Below are positions 43,760 to 51,881 of a stretch of 64,000 bases of DNA, piece after piece. This stretch comes from Planctomycetota bacterium. GTDB taxonomy: Bacteria > Planctomycetota > Planctomycetia > Gemmatales > Gemmataceae. The DNA is taken from NCBI GenBank assembly GCA_016191165.1, contig JACPPF010000114.1, positions 1-64,000 on the forward strand. The letters run 5' to 3'. How positions within the stretch are numbered: the stretch's first letter is position 1; each line of letters begins with the position of its first letter. A model generated the notes under the pieces. The model was not told the origin of the DNA, did not search any database, and worked only from the letters and a program-made list of their open reading frames with translations. Both the position numbers and the translations under genes were made by a program.

Positions 43760-46489
43760 TCATTCCGCCAGTTCGGTCGGCAGCGCCGGGTCCGCCGCCA
43801 GAAACACACGGCTGCGGGCGTTCAGCAAGACGTGCTGGATCCAGGAAGGCAACGCGAGCTGTGGAGCGCGATGGATTTCTTCGGAAAGAGGCAGCACGAT
43901 CAGATCCGCGCCGATATCTGCCGCCTGACGCACGATCTCCGGGCCGAGGTCGTCACGAATCGCTCGCGGAGCAGTGTCGCGGCCGACCTGGGTCATTTGC
44001 AACTGGATGGTTTGAAGCGTATCCGGTCCCGTGGCATTTTCCGCGCGGGGGAGAACGAGGACGCTCATGCCGACTTCCGGATCGAGCGCGGTCAGCGTGG
44101 CCTCGAACAGGTCGAGCCCGGCCCGAGTATCCGGGACCACCAGGAGTACGCGCTCGACGCCAACGCCAGCCTGGCGCAGCTCGGCCACGTTGCGGGCCTT
44201 CGTTTCCCCCGCGCGTGGAATGCGGTTGCCTCCCGCAAGGTCAAAGTACAGATCGCGATCCTTGCTCAGGATACGCACGGTCAAAGGCGCCGTGTCGCCG
44301 CCGTGCAGGTTGATCCACATCAAGGAGACCTGATCGAGCTGTTCATCCGCGGTGAACACATTCGAGGCGCCGATGACCAGTTCCTGAACTTGCAAATCCC
44401 GGGCGGTCCGCAACAGGGCGTATACGGGATTGTTCGTCGGCACGACCAGAGGATGCACCTGTTTTCCGGCCAACTCCGCCCGATTCACGACAGCCGTCAT
44501 CAACTCCCGATCGTAGGCATCCAGTGCTCCGGGGTCCGGGTTATCGTTCTCCTTCAAGGTTTTCTTGGCCGTCATCACGATCACGTCGGTGAGCTCGGGA
44601 TCCGTCTCGGCGAGGGCCTTCTCCAGCATGTAGAGGTTTTGCGTGGAGCGGATCGCCACCAGCCGGCGGAAAGGTTTGCTGAGGTTCATGCCGGGCAAGG
44701 TGACTTCTTCCGCCGAGGCCTGGTTGAATTGTTCGACGTGTTTGTGTTTTTCGCCACGCAGGTTGGATTCGCGCACCCGCTCCGAGACGTGGAAGATGAC
44801 GAAGAAAAGCGCGCTGAATGCCAAACCTGAAACCGCGGCGACCGGCTTGGTAAACAGGTTCACGACGCCAACCGTCAACAAGACCAGAAAAATCGACAGC
44901 AGGCCAATCGGGATTTCCGCCACGCCGATTCTGAGATTCAAGGGCACCCGATATTCGCGCGGCCGCTGATCCTTGAAACGCAAGACCACCATCGCCAGAG
45001 CGTTGAAGGTGAAACTCCATACCACACCGAAGGCATAGGCTTCACCCAACACGATCATGTCGCCCCGGCTAAACAGGATTACCACGATTTGCAGTCCCGT
45101 TATGAGGGTCAAAATACGATAGCTTGTGCCGTAGGTCGGATGGGGCTTCAAGAACCAGTCGGTGAGGACCCCGTCCTCGGTAACGCGGCACAGGACTCCA
45201 TTGGACCCAATGATCGAGGTATTGACGGCGCCGGAAAGGATCAGGAAACCAACCACGACGACGAACGCCTCCAGGCACAGCTTCAAGGGAGTTGGTCCAA
45301 TGACGTGCCGCGCCAGACCGCTAAGAAGATTTTCGGCGTAGAACTTCATGCGGACCTCGTCGGGAATCAGCATGACGGCCAGGAAGCTGACGCCGGCCGT
45401 CACGACGAGAGTAAAGACGAAGACGATCATGGCCGCCCGTTTGAAATTGAGCAACTTCGGCGCTTCCACCTCGCGATAGACCTGGGCCAGCGTTTCCTCG
45501 CCCGACATCGCCAGGATCGAGTGCCCAAACGCGAGCATGAACCCAAAGACCGTGATGCCGCGCAGCACGTCGGCAAAGCGAAAAAACGAGAAGAAACCGA
45601 GGGGATCATCTTGCATCTCGATGCCGACCTTGTGCATTGCCTCATTCATCCGGGGAATCTCCTTACCGTCCTTGTCGCGCAGGGGTTCGAGCCGGTCCGG
45701 GCGCGACGGATCGGCTTTCCAGACTCTGCCCTCTTCCGAGGTGTAGCGTTTGGGGTTGGGGGCCAGGCTTGCGTCAATCTCGACGCGCTCCACCTTGGGC
45801 GTCAGATCGGGCTGCCAGGGAACGTCGTTGGCAGGCCCGTTGACGAGAAGCGTAACGACGCACCAGGCGATCATGATGACAGCCATGATCGTGGCGGCGA
45901 CCATGATCTTGAGCGCCTTGTCGCTCGATTCGTGAATGCCGAGCACATTCTGCCTGTAAAAATACAGCGTCACGCCAATGGCCAGCAGCACCGAACCCCA
46001 GCGTCTCACCTCATCTTCCATTTCATTCGTGACACCCAGGCTTTCATGCAACTGGGGAACAAACAGGCGCATGGCCTGCACCAGTAGTCCCATGATGTAC
46101 TGCCCGGCCGAGACGCCGCTGATTGGGCCGGTCAGAATGTAGTCGAACATCAGGGCGGAGACAGCAAACTTGGCCAGCGTCCCACCCAGCGCCTCCTTGA
46201 CGATGCGATATACGCCGCCGCGCACGAAAAGTGAACAACTCTCGATGTACACCGAGCGAACCGCATAGCTAAAGAGCATGACGGCGAGGATGAACCACGG
46301 CGCCGCCGGGCCGATGGCGCTTTCGACGATCCCGCCGATGTAGTACACCGTGCTGGCGATGTCGCACAACACGACTGCGGCCGTGCGCCAGTAGGAAATG
46401 AACGTGAACATCACGCTGCTCACGATGATAACGTGAGCGGCCTTCCGCAGACCACCCGCGGGGGCAACCGGAGCCGTTGATTCACTCAT
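43760..46489 (-). CDS. APC-type transporter with C-terminal USP-like domain, riboswitch controlled
   Basis: This 909-residue protein has an APC-superfamily core of about 12 membrane segments (for example AAPWFILAVMLFSYAVRSVY, GITVFGFMLAFGHSILAMSG, IPIGLLSIFLVLLTVGVVNL) with a long soluble loop near residues 225-300. The C-terminal 260 residues are soluble and resemble a universal stress protein domain (FRRLVAIRSTQNLYMLEKAL, ADLIVLPLSEEI). Its leader carries a ydaO-type c-di-AMP riboswitch (46584-46750) and a terminator just before the ATG. In other bacteria this riboswitch controls potassium and osmolyte transporters such as KimA, so this protein probably imports K+ or an osmolyte. No clear Shine-Dalgarno precedes the ATG. 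Confidence 0.85.
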   Translation of the reverse strand: MSESTAPVAPAGGLRKAAHVIIVSSVMFTFISYWRTAAVVLCDIASTVYYIGGIVESAIGPAAPWFILAVMLFSYAVRSVYIESCSLFVRGGVYRIVKEALGGTLAKFAVSALMFDYILTGPISGVSAGQYIMGLLVQAMRLFVPQLHESLGVTNEMEDEVRRWGSVLLAIGVTLYFYRQNVLGIHESSDKALKIMVAATIMAVIMIAWCVVTLLVNGPANDVPWQPDLTPKVERVEIDASLAPNPKRYTSEEGRVWKADPSRPDRLEPLRDKDGKEIPRMNEAMHKVGIEMQDDPLGFFSFFRFADVLRGITVFGFMLAFGHSILAMSGEETLAQVYREVEAPKLLNFKRAAMIVFVFTLVVTAGVSFLAVMLIPDEVRMKFYAENLLSGLARHVIGPTPLKLCLEAFVVVVGFLILSGAVNTSIIGSNGVLCRVTEDGVLTDWFLKPHPTYGTSYRILTLITGLQIVVILFSRGDMIVLGEAYAFGVVWSFTFNALAMVVLRFKDQRPREYRVPLNLRIGVAEIPIGLLSIFLVLLTVGVVNLFTKPVAAVSGLAFSALFFVIFHVSERVRESNLRGEKHKHVEQFNQASAEEVTLPGMNLSKPFRRLVAIRSTQNLYMLEKALAETDPELTDVIVMTAKKTLKENDNPDPGALDAYDRELMTAVVNRAELAGKQVHPLVVPTNNPVYALLRTARDLQVQELVIGASNVFTADEQLDQVSLMWINLHGGDTAPLTVRILSKDRDLYFDLAGGNRIPRAGETKARNVAELRQAGVGVERVLLVVPDTRAGLDLFEATLTALDPEVGMSVLVLPRAENATGPDTLQTIQLQMTQVGRDTAPRAIRDDLGPEIVRQAADIGADLIVLPLSEEIHRAPQLALPSWIQHVLLNARSRVFLAADPALPTELAE

Positions 46490-46526: not shown

Positions 46527-46583
46527 GGCTCAGCACGAACGCAACGAAATGCGCGTGCCCTTTCAAAGTGGCTGGCGCACCAT

Positions 46584-46750
46584 GCGCCGCCCGGCCTACG
46601 AGGTTAGCTGACGGGCTAGGGCTTGAAAGTGCCCTGATCGGCATGAGACGGGAATTGACCGTCCGAAGCCGGATCTACGCCCCGTGAAGGAGTTTATTGC
46701 CTTCGTTGGGTCCCCCGTTCGCACGCCGTGCGGCGTGCGATTCGGCTACA
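46584..46750 (-). promoter_or_regulatory. c-di-AMP riboswitch (ydaO-yuaA type)
   Basis: The minus-strand leader of the APC transporter carries the ydaO-yuaA signature: GGGGGACCCAA (46716-46706), GGGGCGTAGATC (46683-46672) and the strongly conserved GTCAGCTAACCTCGTAGGC (46612-46594). A perfect 9-base hairpin (46740-46719) lies at the 5' side. A TATAAT (46765-46760) just upstream is a likely -10 box. With the terminator at 46504-46526 this fits a switch that stops transcription when c-di-AMP is high. Boundaries are approximate. Confidence 0.85.
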
Positions 46751-46857
46751 CGATCAATGATTATACATACTTCGGCGGTCATTTCCAGCCCGCGGCGCCG
46801 CTGGGCGTTCTGGTAGTGCCTGCCCTGATCACCGCGAAACCGCCAGCGGCGTCTCGT

Positions 46858-48837
46858 CTACCCGATAATCACTTTGGGCTGGCGCTGCGGATCGGGTTCC
46901 GCGTCGAGGATCAACTCGCGCACCATCCACGGCACATTGCCTTCGCCGAACAGGAGGAAGCTGACGTTCGCCGCCATGGGCCGTTGATCCGACCAGCCGA
47001 AATGGATTTCTGGCGGCGCCCCGCTCCGCGAAAGTTCCAGGGCCAACGCGGCGATCGTGTGGGCAATCGACGCGCAGCGGTTGATCCGCAAAATAAACAC
47101 CCCCTCCTCCTGAATCACTTCCATCAGCGGCGTTTGATAAAACTCGCTGACGTCGCCGAGGTTCGCCTCGATGAAGACGATCGGAACCTCCGGACCCAGG
47201 CGGTGCTCCTTGCGGATCGATTCCTCCTTCTCGCGGATACTGCGGCCGCCCGGGCGGTGGGGCACCAGAACGGGGAAGTCGAGCATTTTCATGCTATCCC
47301 AGAGAAAACGCGACTGCGAATCGACGAAATGCAGCCCTTGAAAACGCAGCTCCTTGCTGCGCATGAAACGCGAGACGATCGACGACACCACGATCGCCAC
47401 GATAAACCAACTTGCGATGAGCAAACCATCGGGTTTTTCAATCATGTTGGCCAGCGTGGTGTAAATGAAAACCAGCGTGATGAGCGCGAAGGGCCAGGAC
47501 AGACGCAAAAACCACCGCCCCCGGCGCGAACGCCAGCGATCGATCAGCGTCGCGATGCAGGCGCTGCACATGAGCACCAACACGCCCGTCGCATAGGCGG
47601 CGCCCTGGGCCTCGACCGAGGCGTCGAATTTCCAGGTGACAATGAGATTGATCACCGTGAACAAGATGACCAGCGGCCGGATCGCCCGCGCCCATTGCGG
47701 CGCCATGCCATAGCGGGGCAGATACTGCGGCACCAGGTTGAGCAGCCCCGCCATGGCGCTGGCGCCCGCAAACCAGAGGATGACCACGGTGCTGATATCG
47801 TAAAGGGTGCCGAACTCGGCGCCAAAGACGGGATTGACACAGGCCGACGATTGGCCGTCCCGAATCATCTCTCCGTGCGCCAGGTAAGCGAGGGTACGAT
47901 CGTGAGCGGCGCCGCCCTTCTTCATCACCTCCGGACTGATCAACGTGCTCGTCACGAGCGACGACCCGAGCAGGAACGTGGACATGATCAGCGCCGCCGT
48001 GATGAGCAACTTGCGGGCGTTGCGAATTCGGCCCGCCGGTTCTTTCTCGGTATCGCCGGGATCTCCCTTGATGAGCGGCATGACGGCCACGCCGGTCTCG
48101 AAGCCGCTCAATCCCAGCGCAAGTTTCGGAAACAGGATCGCGCAAATCAACCCAATGCGCCAATACCCGGCATCGTCGCCAAAGTGGTGCTCGAAATGCC
48201 AGTTCCCGGCCTGCACCTCGTTCAACCAGTGCTCGACATGGTGAAAATGCTGCGCGTCCCAGAGGTAGACAAGGCCACTACCGACGACGATAACATTCAG
48301 CGTCAAATAAACGCCGACGATGACGATGGCCAGGCCGATGACTTCCTTGAACCCTCGCAAGAACGTGGCTCCGAGAAACACCAGCAAGAGCATGGTGATG
48401 ACCATCTGAGTCTGGTCCCAGCCCAGGTATTGCTCGAGCATTGGGTTTTTGATTACGTGCGCGGCGGCATCCGCGGCGGAAAGGGTCTTGGTGATCACGA
48501 AATCGGTGGCCGCAAACCCTAGCAGCACCAGCACCAGCAATTTGCCAAGCCAACCGCGAACCAGCCGCTCCAGCATCGCGATCGACCCCTGGCCGTGAGG
48601 CGAGCGCGACGCAACATGCGCATAAACCGGCAAGGCGCCGAACAACGTGACCATCACCAGAATGATCGTCGCAAAGGGCGTCAGCAACCCCGTCGCTTCA
48701 AATGCAATCGATGGCTGATAGCCGAGCGTGCTGAAGTAGTCCACGCCGGTAAGGCACATGACCCAGAGCCAAAAACTCTGCGGATGGGCGTGCCCCGATG
48801 TATCCATTTCTTGGGTTTGGGACGTGTCGTTTTTCAT
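46858..48837 (-). CDS. APC-type transporter with soluble C-terminal domain
   Basis: This protein of 659 residues (ATG at 48837) has about 12 membrane segments of the APC superfamily; the first, SFWLWVMCLTGVDYFSTLGY, carries the GVDYFSTLGYQPSIA motif shared with its neighbour. A soluble tail of about 180 residues follows (from SRFMRSKELRFQGLHF), ending FLLFGEGNVPWMVRELILDA. It is paralogous to the gene at 48925-50952 along its whole length, so the pair arose by tandem duplication and diverged. They lie 87 bases apart, probably in one transcript. K+ or amino acid transport is likely; the substrate is not shown by sequence. Confidence 0.82.
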   Translation of the reverse strand: MKNDTSQTQEMDTSGHAHPQSFWLWVMCLTGVDYFSTLGYQPSIAFEATGLLTPFATIILVMVTLFGALPVYAHVASRSPHGQGSIAMLERLVRGWLGKLLVLVLLGFAATDFVITKTLSAADAAAHVIKNPMLEQYLGWDQTQMVITMLLLVFLGATFLRGFKEVIGLAIVIVGVYLTLNVIVVGSGLVYLWDAQHFHHVEHWLNEVQAGNWHFEHHFGDDAGYWRIGLICAILFPKLALGLSGFETGVAVMPLIKGDPGDTEKEPAGRIRNARKLLITAALIMSTFLLGSSLVTSTLISPEVMKKGGAAHDRTLAYLAHGEMIRDGQSSACVNPVFGAEFGTLYDISTVVILWFAGASAMAGLLNLVPQYLPRYGMAPQWARAIRPLVILFTVINLIVTWKFDASVEAQGAAYATGVLVLMCSACIATLIDRWRSRRGRWFLRLSWPFALITLVFIYTTLANMIEKPDGLLIASWFIVAIVVSSIVSRFMRSKELRFQGLHFVDSQSRFLWDSMKMLDFPVLVPHRPGGRSIREKEESIRKEHRLGPEVPIVFIEANLGDVSEFYQTPLMEVIQEEGVFILRINRCASIAHTIAALALELSRSGAPPEIHFGWSDQRPMAANVSFLLFGEGNVPWMVRELILDAEPDPQRQPKVIIG

Positions 48838-48924
48838 GTGAGCAGCCGAACCCATATCACCTTGCGATGGCCCCTAGCGACCGAACTGCAATTTACGACG
48901 AAGCCGGTCCAAAGGACAGCGAAA

Positions 48925-50952
48925 TCACCCCACAATAACCCGCGGCCGATTGTTCGGGTCCTTCTCCGCGCGATGAATCAACTCGCGGACCTTCCACGGC
49001 AAATTGCCTTCGCCAAACGCCAGATAGCTCCAGCTGGCCGACAGCATATCCTTCTCAGGCCAGCCGAAATGCAAGCCCGGCGGCTCACTGTGCAGCGACA
49101 TCTCCAGGGCAACCGCGGCGATGGCATGGGCCAACGACACGCAATGCGTGACCTTGATGACGTAGCGATGGTTGTCGCGCACGACCTCGATCATCAGATT
49201 TTGCAGAAACTCGCTCGGATCATCCACGTACACTTCCAGAAACGCGACACCAACTTCCGGGGACAAATGGTGCTGCGCGCGAATTTGCGCCTCCTTTTCT
49301 TCGTGGTTCTCACGTTTCAGATCGACGGGGATGAGCACGGGGAAATAGGCGTGGCGCAAATTGTCCCAGTGAAATTTCGATTGCTCATCCTTGAACTCAA
49401 AGCCGATGGTACGCAGCTCATCCGCGCGCCAGGCCCGCGACAGGATTGACGTGGTGAGAATGGCGGCGACGAAGCACATCGCAATCGCCAGTCCGCCCGG
49501 CGCCTGCATCACCACCGCCAGCGTCGTCGCCAGAAAAACCACCGCGATCGCCCCGAAATAGCCGACGTTCAGGGCGCGAAAAAATGAACTCCCACGCTCG
49601 CGGCGTTTCTGAATCAGAGTCACCACCGCCGCGCTCGCCATCAGCACGAGGACGCCCGTGGCATAGGCGCCGCGCTGGTCTTCCACGTCGGCCTGGAACA
49701 TGACGGTGATCAAGACATTGACGCCGGCGAAGAGAATCAGCATCACCCCCCAGCGCTGCGCCCAGCTGAACTCCATGCCGAATCGCATCAGAAAGGAAGG
49801 TAGCAGCACCGACAACGCCGTGATGACGCTCGTGCCCGCCAGGGCCAGCATCAAGATCACGACAAGGTCATAGACAGCGCCGAACCCCGGACCGCAGAAC
49901 GGCAGCAACGTCGCCTGGTCGCCCGCCACCAACGGCCCGCCGTGAGCCAAATAGGCCAGGGCGCGGTTATTCGCCAGGCCCTCCGGACCAAAGGCCGGCG
50001 GGGGAATTAGCAGGGTCGTGACGGTCACCGAGCCAAGCAGGTATACCGACATGATCAGCGCCGCCGCCACGAGTACCTTGCGCGTATTCCGAATCCGCGT
50101 AACCGGCGGCTGTTCGCCGGCAACGCCTTGCACCTGCGGCATCAAGATCATGCTCATCTCGAAACCGCTCAAGCCCAGCGCAAGCTTCGGCAACGCAATT
50201 AGCGCGAACAGAACAAGGGTGCTCCATCCGCCGATCCCGCCGCGTACCACTTCGTCGAGCCAATGGGTAAAAATGTCGCCGTGGTTCCCAAGAAAAAAAA
50301 GCCCCCCCACGATCAGGATTCCGGTCAACAGGAGGTAGAGCGCCACCAATGGCACAGCCACTGCCGTAACCTTCCGCGTGAAGCCCCGGCGCAACAGGAA
50401 CCAGAACGCAAACGCGATGACGCCGAGGATGATGGTAACGACGAGTTGCTCGTTGATGTGCGTGGCGGCCTCATCGGACAGGTAATCCTTGGCGCAATCC
50501 TTGCACCATCCCGCGAACGCGCGCGCGATCTGCTGGCGGTCGCCGTCATGCTTGTTGAGCACATGAACGGAGGCGTCGGCCAGCGACATGGACTTGAGCA
50601 TGGTGAAGTCGGTGGCGGCGAAACCCAGAAGGATCAGGACCAACGTCTTGCCGCGCCAGCCGCGCACCAGTTTCTCGACAATGCCAAACGCCCCCGCTCC
50701 CGCCGGGGAGCGAGCCGCGAGATGACAGTAGATGGGCAAGGCCCCGAACAGGGTGACCAGCACAACCACCGCCGTCGCGATCGGCCCGAGCAGCTTGGTC
50801 TCGTGATAGGTGATCGACGGCTGATATGCCAGCGTGCTAAAATAATCCAGGCCCAGGAGGCAGACCACCCAAAGCCAAAAGTATTCCTCGGCGGGCTTCT
50901 TTGAACCCGGCGAGGAATCGGAGGGCAATTTCGGTGGCGGAAGGGTGGCCAT
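48925..50952 (-). CDS. APC-type transporter with soluble C-terminal domain
   Basis: This protein (675 residues from the ATG at 50952) is the sister of the gene at 46858-48837, sharing LGLDYFSTLAYQPSI, LVLILLGFAATDFTMLKSMS, LPKLALGLSGFEMSMILMPQ and a soluble tail ending LAFGEGNLPWKVRELIHRAE. It carries a soluble loop near residues 140-175 (KHDGDRQQIARAFAGWCKDC) that its sister lacks. The start at MATLPPPK is chosen because homology begins soon after it; in-frame starts up to 51054 would overlap the thioredoxin-like gene. No riboswitch is seen upstream. Confidence 0.82.
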   Translation of the reverse strand: MATLPPPKLPSDSSPGSKKPAEEYFWLWVVCLLGLDYFSTLAYQPSITYHETKLLGPIATAVVVLVTLFGALPIYCHLAARSPAGAGAFGIVEKLVRGWRGKTLVLILLGFAATDFTMLKSMSLADASVHVLNKHDGDRQQIARAFAGWCKDCAKDYLSDEAATHINEQLVVTIILGVIAFAFWFLLRRGFTRKVTAVAVPLVALYLLLTGILIVGGLFFLGNHGDIFTHWLDEVVRGGIGGWSTLVLFALIALPKLALGLSGFEMSMILMPQVQGVAGEQPPVTRIRNTRKVLVAAALIMSVYLLGSVTVTTLLIPPPAFGPEGLANNRALAYLAHGGPLVAGDQATLLPFCGPGFGAVYDLVVILMLALAGTSVITALSVLLPSFLMRFGMEFSWAQRWGVMLILFAGVNVLITVMFQADVEDQRGAYATGVLVLMASAAVVTLIQKRRERGSSFFRALNVGYFGAIAVVFLATTLAVVMQAPGGLAIAMCFVAAILTTSILSRAWRADELRTIGFEFKDEQSKFHWDNLRHAYFPVLIPVDLKRENHEEKEAQIRAQHHLSPEVGVAFLEVYVDDPSEFLQNLMIEVVRDNHRYVIKVTHCVSLAHAIAAVALEMSLHSEPPGLHFGWPEKDMLSASWSYLAFGEGNLPWKVRELIHRAEKDPNNRPRVIVG

Positions 50953-51002
50953 ACCCTGTGTTCTATGCCCGGCCCGTTCGATCATCCATTGCCCGCGGGG
51001 GT

Positions 51003-51584
51003 TCATTTCGGCAGGACGTTGGAGAGCGCCTCGATGATCTTGTCGCTCATGCAATCGTCCAGTTCGGCTTGCCGCAGGGCGAAGTTGGCAGTTACGCGGT
51101 TCTGGCCTGGGCGACCGGGCGTATAGACCACGACCGTCACGTCGGCGGCGGGGTTGATCTCGTAACGCGGCGGCGCGGCGCCGAGGCAGAGCGTCACACG
51201 CGAAAGCGAGTTCTGTTTCGCCATACAGCGAAGCTGGTCAGCCCGTCCCGCGGCGTCAGGCATGATGACGAAGGTGCCGAGTTTTTGATTGGGCTTGTAC
51301 TTGGGAGCCGCTTCGTTGATGCGGGTATCGATTTTCTTGACCAGACTGGCCAAGGGGCCGTTCATCTCCTTGACGAAGACGAGAACGACCAGGTCGGTGT
51401 CGCGCGTTCAGACCGGGCAGCGGCGTTCGCCGGCGCCGGGTCCTGTGACGAGGTTCGGAAAGAATCCGCCGCGGTTATTGCGTTGTCCGACCTGCGGGCC
51501 GGACTTCAGACCTTCTTCAGCCATGCCGTTGCCGGCGATCAGCAGGACCGCAATAGCGGCGCTGGCGAGGATGCGTGTCGTCAT
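51003..51584 (-). CDS. Exported thioredoxin-like protein with in-frame UGA at CxxC (candidate selenoprotein)
   Basis: Read through one TGA, this gene encodes 193 residues: a signal peptide (ILASAAIAVLLIAGNGMA), the segment LKSGPQVGQRNNRGG typical of a planctomycete thioredoxin-like family, then GAGERRCPV, a TGA (51408-51410, codon 59), and TDLVVLVFVKEMNGPLASLV. Relatives I recall have a CxxC pair exactly here, so the UGA sits at the second cysteine, giving CPVU if it is read as selenocysteine. The frame stays open and family-like for 134 codons afterwards (AADVTVVVYTP, DDCMSDKIIEALSNVLP). A GGGAG lies 9 bases before the ATG at 51584. A nonsense mutation of a Cys codon is the alternative. It lies 50 bases upstream of the APC transporter pair. 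Confidence 0.6.
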
Positions 51585-51881
51585 TTCAGGTTCTCCCGAA
51601 AGGCCAGCCCCAGCGAAGTCCCGCGGACTCCCGCGATTTCTGTCAACCTGCGACCTGCCTCTAACTGACAAGCGGGAGGGGTGGGGAGGAGCCGCCAAAT
51701 TTTTTTGAATTTACGCTTTAGCGCTAGATACGCGCGAAACAAGCTCATCAACTCGTTCCCAAGATCGGCTTCTCACGACACGAGACGTATTGCAACAGGA
51801 CACGCTTTGGAAGCGGAGTTTCCCGCTTTGCGTTCCCAAGCGGCGCTTGCGAAGGAGATCGAGAATCCAGCGCTGGAGTGC

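What the first reader, a model, noticed from the sequence alone, without database searches (positions are those of the whole stretch)
51003..51584. Candidate exported selenoprotein: UGA at the second Cys of a thioredoxin CxxC
A signal-peptide thioredoxin-like gene has one in-frame TGA (51408-51410, codon 59) giving CPV-TGA exactly where relatives, from memory, carry the second Cys of CxxC. The remaining 134 codons stay open and family-like, with no other lesion. Reading UGA as selenocysteine would give a CxxU redox centre outside the cytoplasm, next to transporters. A weak stem (CGAC / GUCG, 9-base loop, starting 5 bases after the UGA) is present, but I cannot claim a proper bacterial SECIS.
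Basis: partly seen in the sequence, partly recalled or inferred. Interest (0 to 1): 0.8.

Follow-up and report, generated by a model that had tools for sequence, protein, structure and literature searches.

The report
New exported planctomycete selenoprotein family
This bacterial gene contains a UGA "stop" codon that is almost certainly read as the rare amino acid selenocysteine, in an undescribed family of exported redox proteins whose messenger RNA carries its selenocysteine signal about twice as far from the UGA as the textbook rule allows.

Summary
The minus-strand gene 51584..51003 has one in-frame TGA (51410..51408, codon 59) in CPV-TGA. Among 128 distinct planctomycete homologues, 64 carry exactly one in-frame TGA, always in the same column, where 62 others have Cys; the Cys three residues earlier is invariant. 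All 11 genes of the window's own subfamily have TGA. The genome encodes tRNA-Sec, SelA and SelB; SelD is missing from this assembly but present in same-genus relatives. The coding sequence stays under purifying selection after the TGA.

The second, CUUGRCC-AGUYU-GGUCAAG, fits the bacterial SECIS loop consensus but lies 61 nt from UGA instead of 16-37. Its motif follows 58 of 64 TGA genes and none of 62 Cys genes.

The protein is a predicted exported thioredoxin/peroxiredoxin-fold protein, but CxxU precedes strand 1, away from the canonical active site. No Pfam or NCBIfam model describes the family, and it is not recognisable in a 2026 inventory of 119 prokaryotic selenoprotein families. The enzymatic role is inferred, not shown.

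The parts
51003..51584 (-). Selenoprotein gene, 193 aa with Sec at residue 59; stop codon is TGA at 51005..51003
51593..51597 (-). GGGAG, likely ribosome-binding site 8 nt before ATG
   Evidence: read in the sequence
51519..51584 (-). Signal-peptide-like N-terminus, residues 1-22 (MTTRILASAAIAVLLIAGNGMA)
   Evidence: by inspection; residues 1-6 and 14-22 have pLDDT under 50
51417..51419 (-). TGC codon of Cys56, first Cys of CxxU, invariant in 158 of 158 homologues
51408..51410 (-). TGA codon 59, selenocysteine; Cys in 62 of 128 distinct homologues, TGA in 64
51356..51390 (-). Hairpin 1 of the SECIS region, nt 21-55 counted from the U of UGA
   Evidence: helices 1 and 2, two-sided changes in 7 of 11 pairs
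51336..51354 (-). Hairpin 2, CUUGGCC-AGUCU-GGUCAAG, proposed SelB-binding SECIS hairpin; loop G is 61 nt after UGA
51006..51494 (-). Thioredoxin/peroxiredoxin-fold domain, about residues 31-193

Best explanation
The gene encodes an exported, thioredoxin/peroxiredoxin-fold selenoprotein of a family seen so far only in planctomycetes. During translation the UGA at codon 59 is decoded as selenocysteine by SelB carrying Sec-tRNA(Sec), recruited by an in-frame RNA element of two adjacent hairpins. Hairpin 2 (A-GU-Y-U loop) most likely binds SelB. Hairpin 1 folds up the extra length, so that the effective spacing (61 minus 35, about 26 nt) falls back into the normal 16-37 nt range. The product is secreted through the general secretory route and uses Cys56-x-x-Sec59 as a redox pair (selenenylsulfide/thiol-selenol). 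Many paralogues do the same with CxxC and lack the RNA element. Shown computationally: Sec/Cys exchange, machinery, constraint, RNA covariation, fold. Inferred: which hairpin binds SelB, the spacer role of hairpin 1, export, and the redox chemistry and partner. The confidence given is for the selenoprotein claim; I put the hairpin-2/spacer reading at about 0.7 and a redox role for CxxU at about 0.8.
For: All in-frame TGAs in one column, first Cys invariant. Eleven of 11 genes in the window's subfamily (43% identity or more) have TGA. Own genome has tRNA-Sec (73 bits; ARAGORN SeC, anticodon TCA), SelA (560 bits) and SelB (362 bits). dN/dS about 0.2-0.5 after the TGA. Two-hairpin element: 93.2% of cells paired against 88.9% in shuffles and 28-48% in slid controls; 49 two-sided changes against 19.7 (0 of 500 shuffles). 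Motif in 58 of 64 TGA genes, 0 of 62 Cys genes; loop Ser codon AGT in 54 of 54, against 40 of 488 elsewhere in the same genes. SelD selenogenes of related genomes carry a GGU-loop hairpin at 32 nt, so their SelB plausibly reads this loop type. Well-finished genomes without Sec machinery have only non-TGA members or none.
Against: No SelD gene in this assembly (only ThiL and HypE), though same-genus relatives have it. Hairpin 2 violates the 16-37 nt spacing rule. Three MAGs with TGA members (G068, G091, G096) show neither SelA nor tRNA-Sec, though genus-mates have SelA. No protein-level evidence exists.
Confidence: 0.94

Rival explanations
1. Ordinary nonsense mutation or sequencing error in a Cys gene; the locus is a pseudogene.
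For: Such cases probably exist in the family: L062 has TGA in a Cys-type background (CLY-TGA) without the hairpin.
Against: TGA at the same codon in 11 of 11 subfamily members from different genomes; reading frame constrained afterwards; hairpin element present (76 bits at 51410..51327).
Confidence: 0.03
2. Selenoprotein, but hairpin 1 (loop about 33 nt after UGA, within the 16-37 nt rule) is the SelB-binding SECIS and hairpin 2 is a helper or enhancer.
For: Hairpin 1 is at the conventional distance, covaries and is better paired in TGA than in Cys genes (88% against 61%); in the window its loop starts GU.
Against: In other members hairpin 1's top loop (e.g. [quoted passage not shown] its sequence varies, whereas hairpin 2's loop AGUYU is nearly invariant through codon choices the protein does not need.
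Confidence: 0.2
3. UGA is decoded as another amino acid (global or local reassignment, or plain readthrough).
For: UGA is read through and the frame continues.
Against: The same gene ends with TGA, without the hairpin; the exchanged residue is Cys in 62 of 64 non-TGA genes, never Trp or Gly; TGA occurs nowhere else in 158 homologues; tRNA-Sec, SelA and SelB are present.
Confidence: 0.01
4. It is a selenoprotein, but the conserved CxxC/CxxU is a structural or metal-binding pair rather than a catalytic redox centre.
For: It lies before strand 1, away from the canonical Trx/Prx active site; the canonical Cys positions are empty in the family.
Against: Repeated Cys/Sec exchange (about 14 changes on a quick tree) is the pattern of catalytic redox residues in known selenoproteins (general knowledge; PMC13188914).
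Confidence: 0.2

Closest known systems
Bacterial SECIS element (bSECIS consensus, reviewed in PMC13188914; E. coli fdhF type)
   Same: In-frame, downstream of UGA; hairpin 2 has a stem of 7-8 bp and a small loop A-GU-Y-U fitting N1-G[G/U]-N-N2; the hairpin alone folds at -10.1 kcal/mol, below the -7.5 limit.
   Different: Loop is 61 nt from UGA in the window instead of 16-37; another covarying hairpin of 35 nt lies between.
Thiol peroxidase Tpx / peroxiredoxins (best structural match 3hvv, Z 15.7, rmsd 2.8 over 145 residues, 19% identity)
   Same: Same overall fold; weak AhpC-TSA/Redoxin profile hits in a few members.
   Different: No conserved Cys at the start of the helix after strand 1; the redox pair sits before strand 1; below Pfam cut-offs.
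TlpA/ResA/DsbE thiol-disulfide oxidoreductases (Z about 14-15)
   Same: Exported thioredoxin fold with a CxxC-type pair.
   Different: CxxC/U position differs; 10-17% identity; no Pfam or NCBIfam match.
Selenoprotein families with CxxU, e.g. Prx-SUH (NF045827) and others of the 119 in PMC13188914
   Same: CxxU motif, thiol-redox fold.
   Different: None of the NCBIfam selenoprotein models recognised the window protein or relatives, except one weak hit of one member to NF045877 (E 0.0018).
Selenoproteins reported in planctomycetes (PMC4807772: fdhA, fmdB and others)
   Same: Phylum uses Sec; full Sec gene sets reported in Gemmata obscuriglobus and Isosphaera pallida.
   Different: This family is not named in the passages read; the supplementary candidate table could not be read here.

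Membership tests
Bacterial selenoprotein gene | In-frame UGA aligned to Cys or Sec in homologues | tested here: met
   64 TGA, 62 Cys, 1 Ser, 1 Arg in one column
Bacterial selenoprotein gene | selA, selB, tRNA-Sec in the genome | tested here: met
Bacterial selenoprotein gene | selD in the genome | tested here: inconclusive
   absent from this 95% complete assembly, present in G001-G006
Bacterial selenoprotein gene | Selenium in the protein | not testable with these tools
   needs 75Se labelling or mass spectrometry
bSECIS consensus | Stem 4-16 bp, loop with G then G/U, MFE at or below -7.5 | tested here: met
   for hairpin 2 (23-nt stretch, -10.1 kcal/mol)
bSECIS consensus | Loop 16-37 nt after UGA | tested here: not met
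   61 nt to the loop G in the window (sequences); similar in relatives; so filed as a variant
Thioredoxin (canonical CxxC) | Thioredoxin fold | tested here: met
   (predicted structure)
Thioredoxin (canonical CxxC) | CxxC at the start of the helix after strand 1 | tested here: not met
   C56/U59 precede strand 65-71; helix starts at 76 without Cys
Peroxiredoxin / Tpx / Prx-SUH | Profile match over the curated cut-off | tested here: not met
Peroxiredoxin / Tpx | Peroxidatic Cys after strand 1 | tested here: not met
   no conserved Cys there

The most novel reading that the evidence does not exclude
A new selenoprotein family with a redox pair moved to a new place in the thioredoxin fold, decoded through a distinct class of bacterial SECIS in which a folded spacer hairpin brings a distant SelB-binding hairpin (61 nt) back into range.
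Probability: 0.55. Interest if true: 0.72.

Novelty: new variant of a known kind. Interest (0 to 1): 0.66.

Why it matters
It adds an apparently undescribed selenoprotein family, common in Gemmataceae and present in other planctomycete families, that standard annotation cuts in two at the UGA. A SECIS with this spacing falls outside the standard bacterial SECIS model, so other selenoproteins may be hidden for the same reason. The paired Sec and Cys versions in the same genomes, with and without the RNA element, give a natural test of what SelB needs in terms of loop and distance.

Tried and rejected
Nonsense mutation or pseudogene and TGA reassignment (see rivals). The transporter neighbourhood as a functional clue: no neighbour of the window gene was found in the roughly 1.5 kb flanks of orthologues, and a wider neighbour scan gave mostly antisense ORFs of the family itself. 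Search for other genes in the genome using the same RNA element: only the window gene and its paralogue on C3 scored well; the third hit (L179) is a protein kinase gene and chance. A pattern search in 59 genomes found the hairpin almost only inside this family, with a few chance hits in low-complexity or unrelated genes. The family was not found in viral contigs or plasmids. No PDB relative by sequence. The first alignment A1 was too diverse for a collection scan. Haft and Tolstoy 2025 is not held; its families are listed in the review with NCBIfam or Pfam models, which were scanned. A first script for SelD found nothing because of its filter and was redone.

Full report
Observation. The minus-strand frame 51584..51003 reads as a 193-residue protein interrupted by one TGA at codon 59 (51410..51408), giving C56-P-V-TGA59; the gene ends with another TGA. 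The N-terminus looks like a signal peptide (by inspection) and a GGGAG precedes the ATG by 8 nt.

Homologues. A six-frame search of 31 planctomycete genomes found relatives in 28, and 95 of 102 genomes of the order have one at E 1e-10. I extracted 158 homologous stretches from the fetched loci, 128 distinct. Every in-frame TGA lies in one alignment column; that column is TGA in 64 distinct genes, Cys in 62, Ser in one and Arg in one, and the Cys three positions earlier is invariant. The window's own subfamily (43-70% identity; G001, G002, G006, G009, G010, G017, G042, G048, G061, G069) has TGA in all 11 members, window included. On a quick tree with that column masked, at least 14 Sec/non-Sec changes are needed (support is limited). 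The named loci found in a scan of 84,980 genomes are nearly all planctomycete MAGs, mostly Gemmataceae, with a few doubtful organism labels.

Machinery. The own genome has tRNA-Sec (73 bits, anticodon TCA), SelA (560 bits) and SelB (362 bits). SelD was not found: the partial hits are ThiL and HypE (identified by reading the sequences). Same-genus genomes G001-G006 all have SelD, three of them with a TGA inside SelD itself, so a gap in this 95% complete assembly is the simplest reading. Of 102 genomes, 12 lack SelA. Seven of those still have a TGA member; four of the seven have a clear tRNA-Sec, and the remaining three (G068, G091, G096) are MAGs estimated 59-95% complete whose genus-mates have SelA. 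The genomes that look truly Sec-less (G016, G018, G019, G020: no SelA and no SelD) have only non-TGA members.

Selection. Between the window gene and six orthologues dN/dS after the UGA and the RNA element is about 0.2-0.3, similar to before it; other pairs range to about 0.5. The downstream part is therefore translated in frame.

RNA element. TGA genes share unexpected codon choices 57-66 nt downstream: TTG in 54 of 60 Leu, ACC in 44 of 45 Thr, and AGT in 54 of 54 Ser, while AGT makes up 40 of 488 Ser codons elsewhere in the same genes. They build the hairpin CUUGRCC-AGUYU-GGUCAAG. Before it lies a longer hairpin (nt 21-55). On 52 sequences the two-hairpin structure has 93.2% paired cells, 49 two-sided changes and a covariation score of 0.240, exceeding all 500 shuffles (88.9%, 19.7, 0.168) and all slid controls. 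Relatedness of the sequences inflates such numbers, and hairpin 2 itself varies little: its evidence is mainly its sequence and its tie to TGA. The hairpin-2 motif occurs in 58 of 64 TGA genes and 0 of 62 Cys genes. One TGA gene without it, L062, has a Cys-type sequence background and is probably a real nonsense change or an error, a useful negative control. The pattern occurs 45 times in 59 genomes against 3 for the reversed control, nearly always 18-22 codons after a family TGA.

Comparison with the SECIS rule. The bacterial consensus asks for a loop with G followed by G/U and 16-37 nt between UGA and loop (PMC13188914). Hairpin 2 fits the loop and stem but lies 61 nt away in the window. SelD selenogenes of the same lineages have a similar hairpin (e.g. 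CUCAGGUCCUGAG) with GGU 32 nt after UGA, so the local SelB seems to use the ordinary rule elsewhere. Removing the 35 nt of hairpin 1 leaves 26 nt, inside the rule. That hairpin 1 is a folded spacer is my inference.

Protein. AlphaFold2 on the window protein with 55 relatives gives pLDDT 87 and pTM 0.82, with order E65-71 H76-95 E102-108 H114-124 E130-134 E149-155 E163-170 H177-190. Best solved matches are thiol peroxidases (Z 15.7), then DsbE/ResA, Bcp, AhpE. C56 and Sec59 come before strand 65-71; the canonical position after that strand has no Cys. The pair is thus in an unusual place, and the resemblance in fold does not settle function. Pfam-A and NCBIfam (June 2026) have no model for the family; a 2026 list of 119 prokaryotic selenoprotein families has no recognisable entry for it, and no paper found describes it. 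Supplements of PMC4807772 could not be read, so an earlier unnamed mention cannot be excluded.

Verdict. A genuine selenoprotein gene of an apparently undescribed, exported, planctomycete family, with an atypical long-spacer SECIS. The redox function, its partner and the exact roles of the two hairpins remain to be tested.

Noticed in passing
window 46757..46578 (-): c-di-AMP riboswitch (RF00379, 55.8 bits) upstream of a 909-aa amino acid permease with a Usp-like tail (46489..43760).
   Followed up: no
window 50955..48925 and 48855..46858 (-): Two similar large membrane-protein genes without Pfam match follow the selenoprotein gene on the same strand; linkage not conserved in the flanks of orthologues.
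   Followed up: partly
G000:C3:16327-15785 (L058): A second TGA-bearing member of the family in the same genome (CLV-TGA) with the same two-hairpin element (98 bits).
   Followed up: yes
L222-L230: SelD genes of several relatives carry TGA themselves, with a GGU-loop hairpin about 32 nt downstream; other relatives have SelD inside long frames of 760-1439 codons, possibly fusions.
   Followed up: partly
G021:C5 (L073): tRNA-Sec gene at 90415-90508 lies about 120 nt upstream of a TGA-bearing family gene on the same strand.
   Followed up: no
L062: Cys-type family gene with TGA in place of the second Cys but without the hairpin: probable true nonsense change or error.
   Followed up: partly
L196 (G002:C27): Divergent family member with the hairpin and the motif CETC-TGA, Cys residues four and one before the TGA instead of three.
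   Followed up: no
L075 and L173: Three TGA-bearing members lacking the standard hairpin 2; either lost function or another SECIS form.
   Followed up: no
L059 and L086: Two members have Arg or Ser in the Sec/Cys column.
   Followed up: no
window 46387-46461 (-): ARAGORN calls a tRNA-Asp with anticodon ATC inside the start of the permease gene; probably spurious.
   Followed up: no
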